Positions 50,523 through 51,554 of a stretch of DNA of 64,000 nt are shown here, piece after piece. The notes under the pieces are model-generated. The model saw nothing but the letters and a program-made list of their open reading frames with translations, did no database searches and was not told where the DNA came from. A program made the translations under genes and the position numbers. This stretch comes from Desulfurococcus sp. (lineage in GTDB: Archaea; Thermoproteota; Thermoprotei_A; Sulfolobales; Desulfurococcaceae). Location of the stretch: contig JAPNUX010000006.1 in assembly GCA_026626905.1 (NCBI GenBank), forward strand, positions 1-64,000. The letters are read 5' to 3'. The first letter of the stretch is position 1; each line of letters opens with the position of its first letter.

Positions 50523-51167
50523 ATGGTTGAAGTAGCCTGGCATGGACATGCTTGTGTATCACTTCGTAGAAGAGACGGCTACACGATAGTCATAGACCCA
50601 CACGACGGGTACAGTATAGGGGTTAAGAGACCAGAGGTTAAAGCCGACCTAGTACTCGTCACACACGACCACTTCGACCATAATGCTGTAAGCGTAGTAT
50701 CAGGGGATAAAACAAGAGTTGTTAAATCATTTAGAGGGGAAATGGTGGTTGATAACATAAAGGTCACAGGACTCCTCACATATCACGATAAACTCAAGGG
50801 TAGAGCTAGAGGAGAGAATACAGTTTACATCGTGGAAGTAGATGGCAAGCGGGTAGCTCACCTAGGTGATTTAGGTGAGATACCTGGATCCAGTGTAATC
50901 TCAGCGCTTAAAGGCGTAGACCTGCTAGCCATACCGGTTGGCGGCACCTTTACAATAGAGCCGGGTGAAGCATGGAGGCTTATAGAGGAGGTTAAACCCG
51001 TGAACATTCTACCAATACACTACTGGATAACAGGTGTAACACTCCCGTTAAAGCCTCTCAGCGAGTTCCTCAAGCATGTAAAAGACTACAGGATTGTAGA
51101 GCTCGACACCAATAAGTTCACGCTCGAAGACTACACTAACAGCGTTATTAAGCCACGCTACATGTAG
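50523..51167 (+). CDS. Metallo-beta-lactamase-fold hydrolase (UlaG-like)
   Basis: 214-aa metal-dependent hydrolase of COG2220. The metal motif is THDHFDH (48-53), with AWHGHAC at the N-terminus, AHLGDLG, and the final His in ILPIHYWITG. Members include UlaG and many uncharacterised proteins; the substrate is not known. ATG has GGTGGA four bases upstream. The C/D box sRNA gene lies 36 bases past its stop. Confidence 0.87.
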   Translation: MVEVAWHGHACVSLRRRDGYTIVIDPHDGYSIGVKRPEVKADLVLVTHDHFDHNAVSVVSGDKTRVVKSFRGEMVVDNIKVTGLLTYHDKLKGRARGENTVYIVEVDGKRVAHLGDLGEIPGSSVISALKGVDLLAIPVGGTFTIEPGEAWRLIEEVKPVNILPIHYWITGVTLPLKPLSEFLKHVKDYRIVELDTNKFTLEDYTNSVIKPRYM

Positions 51168-51202
51168 TAGCTTAGCCTGAAAGCATCCCGTTACATGCTT
51201 AA

Positions 51203-51267
51203 AGCCTGTTTGTGATGAGTCACACCCCCTGAAGCATGATGAGGGATCAACCGGCTGAGGTGGCTTA
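51203..51267 (+). ncRNA. C/D box guide sRNA, D guide matches the 5' end of 16S rRNA
   Basis: All four boxes are present and perfect: C GTGATGA (51213-51219), D' CTGA (51230-51233), C' ATGATGA (51237-51243), D CTGA (51256-51259). The guides are 10 nt (GTCACACCCC) and 12 nt (GGGATCAACCGG); the D'-C' spacer is 3 nt. AAGCC (51203-51207) and GGCTT (51263-51267) close a terminal stem. The D guide is complementary over 11 bases to CCGGUUGAUCC, the universal archaeal 16S 5' end, and by the N+5 rule would direct 2'-O-methylation of the first U. The D' target is not identified. Confidence 0.9.
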
Positions 51268-51305
51268 CACTGGCTTACACATGGGAGCCTAAATGGGAGC
51301 CCTAT
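51262..51305 (+). repeat. Two abutting short tandem duplications
   Basis: TGGCTTACAC occurs twice in tandem (51262-51281), directly followed by a 12-base unit beginning ATGGGAGCCTA twice (51282-51305, one mismatch). The first unit includes the 3' strand of the sRNA terminal stem; the second supplies the GGGAG ribosome site of the next gene. Replication slippage is the simplest explanation. Confidence 0.8.
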
Positions 51306-51308
51306 AAA

Positions 51309-51554
51309 GTGGAAGCCCATGGAATCTCGTTCACAACCTGTAGAGACAGGGTTACAGGGCTGATAGCCTGCCCTATCTGCATACACGCATCCTCAAAATG
51401 CCTTGGCGGGAAGCCTCCAGCAGGAGACTACAGGTTCGAGAACTCCTTCTTCTACACGCTTGATGATCTAATTCAGCACTTGAAGGCCTACCACTTGAGG
51501 GGATGGCATAAGAGAATAGAGAAGATTGCTAGCATGGATAGCATGGAGGAGTAA
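51309..51554 (+). CDS. Small zinc-finger-like protein
   Basis: 81-aa protein of unknown function. It holds CRDR...ACPICIHASSKCLGG in the first half and FYTLDDLIQHLKAYHLRGWHKRI in the second. The paired Cys and HxxxxH resemble a C2H2-type zinc finger. GTG at 51309 has GGGAG at 9 bases. It is followed after 3 bases by the PfkB kinase gene, so they form an operon. Composition and codon use look native. A DNA- or RNA-binding role is a guess. Confidence 0.65.
   Translation: MEAHGISFTTCRDRVTGLIACPICIHASSKCLGGKPPAGDYRFENSFFYTLDDLIQHLKAYHLRGWHKRIEKIASMDSMEE

What the first reader, a model, noticed from the sequence alone, without database searches (positions are those of the whole stretch)
51203..51267. 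Unannotated C/D box sRNA aimed at the extreme 5' end of 16S rRNA
Four exact boxes (GTGATGA, CTGA, ATGATGA, CTGA), guides of 10 and 12 nt, a 3-nt D'-C' spacer and a 5-bp closing stem fit the archaeal symmetric design with no deviation. The D guide GGGATCAACCGG pairs over 11 bases with CCGGUUGAUCC, the conserved start of archaeal 16S rRNA. The N+5 rule predicts 2'-O-methylation of the U after CCGG. This segment forms the central-pseudoknot region, so pairing could also act as a folding chaperone for nascent pre-rRNA. The D' guide would need a target with GGGGUGUGAC, which I cannot place.
Basis: partly seen in the sequence, partly recalled or inferred. Interest (0 to 1): 0.72.

Follow-up and report, generated by a model that had tools for sequence, protein, structure and literature searches.

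The report
Conserved archaeal guide RNA for 16S start
A short non-coding RNA gene in this archaeon carries a 12-letter guide that matches the very start of its own 16S ribosomal RNA; the same guide recurs in the same register across two archaeal phyla, so it probably directs a methyl group there and may delay folding of the ribosome's central knot, much as the U3 RNA does in eukaryotes.

Summary
Window 51212-51258 (+) is a canonical box C/D sRNA: GTGATGA-(10)-CTGA-(3)-ATGATGA-(12)-CTGA. None of 60 simulated windows gave such an arrangement. The D guide pairs with own 16S nt 4-14 (11 Watson-Crick pairs plus one G-U). By the N+5 rule it targets U8 (E. coli U13).

Comparative evidence is strong. 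The guide and its spacing to box D recur in at least 18 of 22 same-family genomes, elsewhere in Thermoproteota, and in Thermococcus. Of 32 strict hits in 84,980 species genomes, 31 are archaeal. When the guide-to-box spacing was left free, the N+5 register dominated (30 of 68). Within the genus the 5' half is scrambled while the C'-D half stays intact.

The D' guide (GTCACACCCC) has no convincing target in 16S, 23S or tRNAs. In other lineages the partner guide, where it can be placed, pairs with 16S central-domain segments around helices 19, 25 or 27, next to the central pseudoknot. This resembles U3 snoRNA, which pairs with the homologous 18S 5' end and which reviews call absent from archaea. 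Thermococcus copies match Rfam sR14.

A new member of a known kind, with a conserved, unusually placed target. Methylation and chaperone activity are inferred, not shown.

The parts
51202..51206 (+). 5' arm (AAGCC) of a possible terminal stem, 5 nt before box C
   Evidence: sequence and fold; not conserved in relatives by eye
51212..51218 (+). box C, GTGATGA
   Evidence: conserved position in relatives
51219..51228 (+). D' guide GTCACACCCC, no target above chance; best is 16S 35-44 (one mismatch, one G-U)
51229..51232 (+). box D', CTGA
51233..51235 (+). 3-nt D'-C' spacer
51236..51242 (+). box C', ATGATGA (often TGAAGA/TGAGGA in same-family relatives)
51243..51254 (+). D guide GGGATCAACCGG, pairs with own 16S nt 4-15; A five nt before box D faces U8
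   Evidence: conserved in register
51255..51258 (+). box D, CTGA
51262..51266 (+). 3' arm (GGCTT) of the possible terminal stem, 3 nt after box D
51270..51554 (+). small downstream gene (AYTWEPKWEP...), no Pfam match; neighbour, not part of the sRNA; its start lies 5-12 nt after box D in genera g1, g7 and L042

Best explanation
An archaeal box C/D guide sRNA. L7Ae, Nop5 and fibrillarin assemble on the C/D and C'/D' motifs; the D guide pairs with nt 4-14 of nascent 16S rRNA; fibrillarin 2'-O-methylates U8 (E. coli U13), at the end of helix 1's 5' strand. While bound, the sRNA necessarily occupies helix 1's 5' strand and the 5' strand of helix 2 (central pseudoknot), so it would also delay those helices until release. 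Shown here: boxes, pairing, register, conservation. Inferred: protein assembly, transcription, methylation, folding delay. The D' guide in this genus looks like a drifting, possibly orphan, guide.
For: Exact boxes and spacing, none in 60 simulated windows. 11 WC + 1 GU pairs with the mature 16S 5' end, 0/400 shuffles, duplex about -22 kcal/mol against -6.4 for the helix-1 hairpin at 37 C. Same guide and register in 20 of 21 matches over 398 Thermoproteota genomes, 31 archaeal of 32 matches in 84,980 species, 21 of 101 Thermococci and relatives, all in the same register. With the guide-to-box distance free (0-8 nt), 30 of 68 matches in the order sit at 2 nt; the four matches at spacing 0 that were inspected lack boxes. 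In the genus, the C'-guide-D half is invariant while the C-D' half cannot be aligned. Genomes with other neighbours keep the sRNA. Thermococcus copies belong to Rfam's C/D family sR14.
Against: No transcript or methylation data. Genus g6 and G014 of the same family lack the pattern, and it was not seen in this register in the largest other families (f11, f15), so the modification is not essential to all hyperthermophiles. C' boxes are degenerate in many relatives. No Rfam family at gathering score in the window.
Confidence: 0.87

Rival explanations
1. It works mainly as a U3-like folding chaperone of the central pseudoknot: the guide keeps the 16S 5' end unpaired, in many lineages while the second guide holds a segment next to the other strand (helix 19, 25 or 27), and methylation is secondary.
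For: Second guides that can be placed pair with E. coli 560-571, 566-577, 816-827, 878-889 or 898-909, all around the central-domain root. Two different guide sequences serve overlapping stretches of helix 19. U3 boxes A'/A pair with 18S nt 6-22, the homologous place, exclusively of the pseudoknot (PMC4340053). A chaperone role for dual-guide sRNAs has been proposed before (PMC4644070).
Against: In the window's own genus the second guide has no clear target. The strictly kept N+5 register is what methylation needs and pure pairing would not. Individual second-guide matches have modest shuffle p values (0 to 0.4). Grouping them as 'near the pseudoknot' was done after seeing them.
Confidence: 0.3
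2. A cis-acting kink-turn in the 5' untranslated region of the downstream small gene, bound by L7Ae to control its translation.
For: Box D ends 5-12 nt before the start codon in nine genomes; GAGGTG overlapping the window's box D looks like a ribosome-binding site; L7Ae regulation through k-turns is reported in archaea (PMC5539422, title and abstract only).
Against: The sRNA exists in many genomes with unrelated neighbours, and the conserved letters are those that pair with 16S, not only the boxes.
Confidence: 0.06
3. A chance match or decayed sRNA with no function.
For: The D' half is unconserved in the genus and GUGAUGAGUCAC can fold on itself.
Against: Conservation of guide and register over two phyla.
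Confidence: 0.03

Closest known systems
Archaeal box C/D methylation-guide sRNAs
   Same: C, D', C', D boxes, two guides of about 10-12 nt, N+5 register
   Different: Target is the extreme 5' end of 16S; published hotspots are helices 3, 18 and 27 (PMC4644070, PMC7994747); the D' guide seems orphan
Rfam RF01145 sR14 (C/D box family)
   Same: Thermococcus sRNAs with the same guide score 51-62 bits against a cut-off of 38
   Different: There the guide sits in the D' half; Rfam's consensus guide (CgGAUCuACGg) differs from GGATCAACCGG by one deletion and one substitution; the window scores only 15 bits
U3 snoRNA (eukaryotes)
   Same: C/D-type RNA that pairs with the homologous 5' end of the small-subunit rRNA (18S nt 6-22), exclusively of the central pseudoknot (PMC4340053)
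   Different: No leader pairing found, 47-nt symmetric guide design, predicted methylation; no evidence of common descent
N. equitans sR15 and sR17 proposed folding chaperones
   Same: C/D sRNAs whose two guides hold distant 16S strands (PMC4644070)
   Different: They target helices 28 and 30, not helices 1 and 2

Membership tests
Archaeal box C/D guide sRNA | Boxes C/C' RUGAUGA and D/D' CUGA in order | tested here: met
Archaeal box C/D guide sRNA | Guide of about 10-12 nt ending at box D/D' that pairs with a stable RNA with a WC pair at position 5 | tested here: met
   D guide:
Archaeal box C/D guide sRNA | Second (D') guide with a target | tested here: inconclusive
   16S p about 0.4, 23S p about 0.46, tRNAs p 0.97
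Archaeal box C/D guide sRNA | Conservation of guide and register in relatives | tested here: met
Archaeal box C/D guide sRNA | Expressed, bound by L7Ae/Nop5/fibrillarin, methylates target | not testable with these tools
   no reads or pull-downs for this organism
Rfam RF01145 sR14 | Score at or above gathering cut-off 38 | tested here: not met
   window 15.2 bits; Thermococcus relatives meet it
U3 snoRNA | Pairs with the 5' end of SSU rRNA, exclusively of helices 1 and 2 | tested here: met
   16S nt 4-14
U3 snoRNA | Pairs with the 5' external leader | tested here: not met
   neither guide pairs with the 500 nt before 16S beyond weak scores
U3 snoRNA | Needed for pre-rRNA cleavage and released by a helicase | not testable with these tools
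   requires genetics

The most novel reading that the evidence does not exclude
Archaea have a functional counterpart of U3: a widely conserved C/D sRNA whose one guide holds the 16S 5' end and whose other guide, in many lineages, holds a strand at the far side of the central pseudoknot, timing its formation; methylation of U8 marks completion. In the window's genus only the first guide has been kept.
Probability: 0.22. Interest if true: 0.85.

Novelty: new member of a known kind. Interest (0 to 1): 0.52.

Why it matters
[quoted passage not shown] A conserved guide on the homologous rRNA site, present in Thermococcus (a genus for which gene deletion is established, PMC9014305), makes that question directly testable: delete one small RNA and look at 16S U8 and 30S assembly.

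Tried and rejected
Target for the D' guide in 16S, 23S, 44 tRNAs, leader, spacer and 23S trailer: nothing above shuffles; best 16S 35-44 (local p 0.11) and 23S 2006-2015 (8 bp). The third genomic copy of CCGGTTGATCC (C1:185338) lies in what reads as coding sequence and is treated as chance. Matches with 0 nt between guide and box D (12 cases): four inspected, no boxes around them. Covariation of guide with 16S: the 16S 5' end hardly varies, so no test was possible. Literature search by guide sequence: no relevant paper.

Full report
OBSERVATION. The window holds one box C/D sRNA, 51212-51258 on the + strand: GTGATGA GTCACACCCC CTGA AGC ATGATGA GGGATCAACCGG CTGA. A scan for four boxes with guide lengths of 9-13 nt finds this site only, and 60 simulated windows of the same dinucleotide make-up give none. 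A 5-bp terminal complementarity exists (AAGCC/GGCTT) but is set off from the boxes by 5 and 3 nt; folding energy is unremarkable. Rfam gives weak generic C/D matches below cut-off.

TARGET. The genome's 16S gene begins ACTCCGGTTGATCCTG. The D guide pairs with nt 4-14 by 11 Watson-Crick pairs, plus G-U at 15; 0 of 400 shuffled guides match 16S as well. The fifth guide nucleotide before box D (A) faces U8, which aligns with E. coli U13. The paired stretch covers helix 1's 5' strand and loop and reaches E. coli 17-19, the 5' strand of helix 2 (helix numbering from general knowledge). Nearest-neighbour energies favour the guide duplex over the helix-1 hairpin.

THE OTHER GUIDE. GTCACACCCC has no target above chance in 16S, 23S, 44 tRNAs, leader or spacers. 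The best 16S site (35-44, N+5 at U39) is close to the D target, as dual guides often are, but has a mismatch and a local p of 0.11. The two other genomes of the genus have unrelated D' guides, also without clear targets. Alignment of the three shows the C'-guide-D half nearly invariant (guide and box D fully so) and the first half unalignable. I conclude that only the D guide is under visible selection in this genus.

CONSERVATION. A pattern with free distances (C' to guide 0-8, guide to D 0-8) found 21 matches in 20 of 398 Thermoproteota genomes; 20 have exactly two nt between GATCAACC and CTGA, which is the N+5 register for U8. A strict pattern over 84,980 species genomes gave 32 matches: 31 archaeal (Desulfurococcales, Wolframiiraptor and Geocrenenecus, Culexarchaeia, Methanomethylicota, Bathyarchaeota, Thermococcus and others) and one bacterium, Duganella, treated as chance. 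Without requiring box C', the order gave 68 matches with spacings 0 to 8 nt in the numbers 12, 4, 30, 5, 1, 2, 10, 3, 1; spacing 2 is far above an even share (binomial 6e-12, though relatives are not independent). In the window's family at least 18 of the 22 genomes listed have it; genus g6 and G014 do not.

ARCHITECTURE IN RELATIVES. In family f2 and in Thermococcus the same guide sits in the first (D') half, so the two halves have changed places. Thermococcus copies match Rfam RF01145 sR14 at 51-62 bits, cut-off 38, although Rfam's consensus guide differs from GGATCAACCGG. So a described C/D family overlaps with this group; whether its 16S 5'-end target was ever listed I could not find out.

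SECOND GUIDES ELSEWHERE. Against their own or a near 16S, the partner guides pair with: E. coli 560-571 (G005, G027, L048), 566-577 (G008, G010, G020, G021, G040, L042), 816-827 (several Wolframiiraptor-type genomes and Thermococci), 878-889 with one mismatch (f2), and 898-909 (Culexarchaeia, Methanomethylicota and others). These segments belong to helices 19, 25 and 27, at the root of the central domain beside helix 2 (general knowledge of the 16S fold). Several guides (window genus, g5, g14, g15, some Thermococci) have no clear target or were not placed. Single p values range from 0 to 0.4; the strength lies in different guide sequences meeting the same small region, but the grouping was made after the fact.

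MECHANISM. Most likely a methylation guide for U8: the conserved register is what fibrillarin placement needs. Binding also excludes helices 1 and 2, so a timing or chaperone effect follows from the pairing if it persists during transcription. This is how U3 is understood to act in yeast: boxes A'/A pair with 18S nt 6-22, the homologous stretch, exclusively of the central pseudoknot (PMC4340053). Reviews say U3-like sRNAs are absent or unknown in archaea (PMC8339473; PMC3608112), while allowing chaperone roles for C/D sRNAs (PMC4644070). In T. kodakarensis, deleting the RNA ligase that circularises C/D sRNAs leads to 16S 5'-end fragments (PMC9014305); this is suggestive at most.

CONTEXT. The sRNA lies between a metallo-beta-lactamase-fold gene (50523-51167) and a small gene of unknown family; its box D is 5-12 nt before that gene's start in nine genomes of genera g1, g7 and L042. 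Elsewhere the neighbours differ, so the sRNA does not depend on them.

VERDICT. Real, correctly interpreted, a new member of a known kind. The wider point, a conserved guide on U3's site with partners near the other side of the pseudoknot, is worth an experiment.

Noticed in passing
window 51260-51284: TGGCTTACAC occurs twice in tandem around the start of the downstream gene; the codon aligned with the relatives' GTG/ATG start is CTG (51270-51272), so the gene may start at CTG or its start may be damaged.
   Followed up: partly
G000:C4 16S gene, own nt about 510 (E. coli 548); L005: A 37-nt insertion (ATCAGGGGCTCCGCCTCACAGCGGACCCCGACGCGAA) in the 16S gene, absent from the congener G001; possibly a very small intron.
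   Followed up: partly
L122, L104, L105, L106, L108, L123, L119, L089: In several same-family genomes a second C/D-like sRNA (such as ATGATGA CCTTTCAGCGGC CTGA) lies on the opposite strand just downstream of the 16S-5' sRNA.
   Followed up: no
L033 (G330): An sRNA whose one guide partly matches the 16S 5' end and whose other guide pairs with the 16S 3' end (CTGGATCACCTC, p 0.005): a possible bridge between the two ends of 16S.
   Followed up: partly
L147, L148, L150 (Thermococci): The 16S-5' sRNA lies several hundred nt upstream of the H/ACA RNA HgcG in three Thermococci.
   Followed up: no
window 51212-51223: GUGAUGAGUCAC: box C and the start of the D' guide can form a small hairpin, which may disfavour use of the D' guide.
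   Followed up: partly
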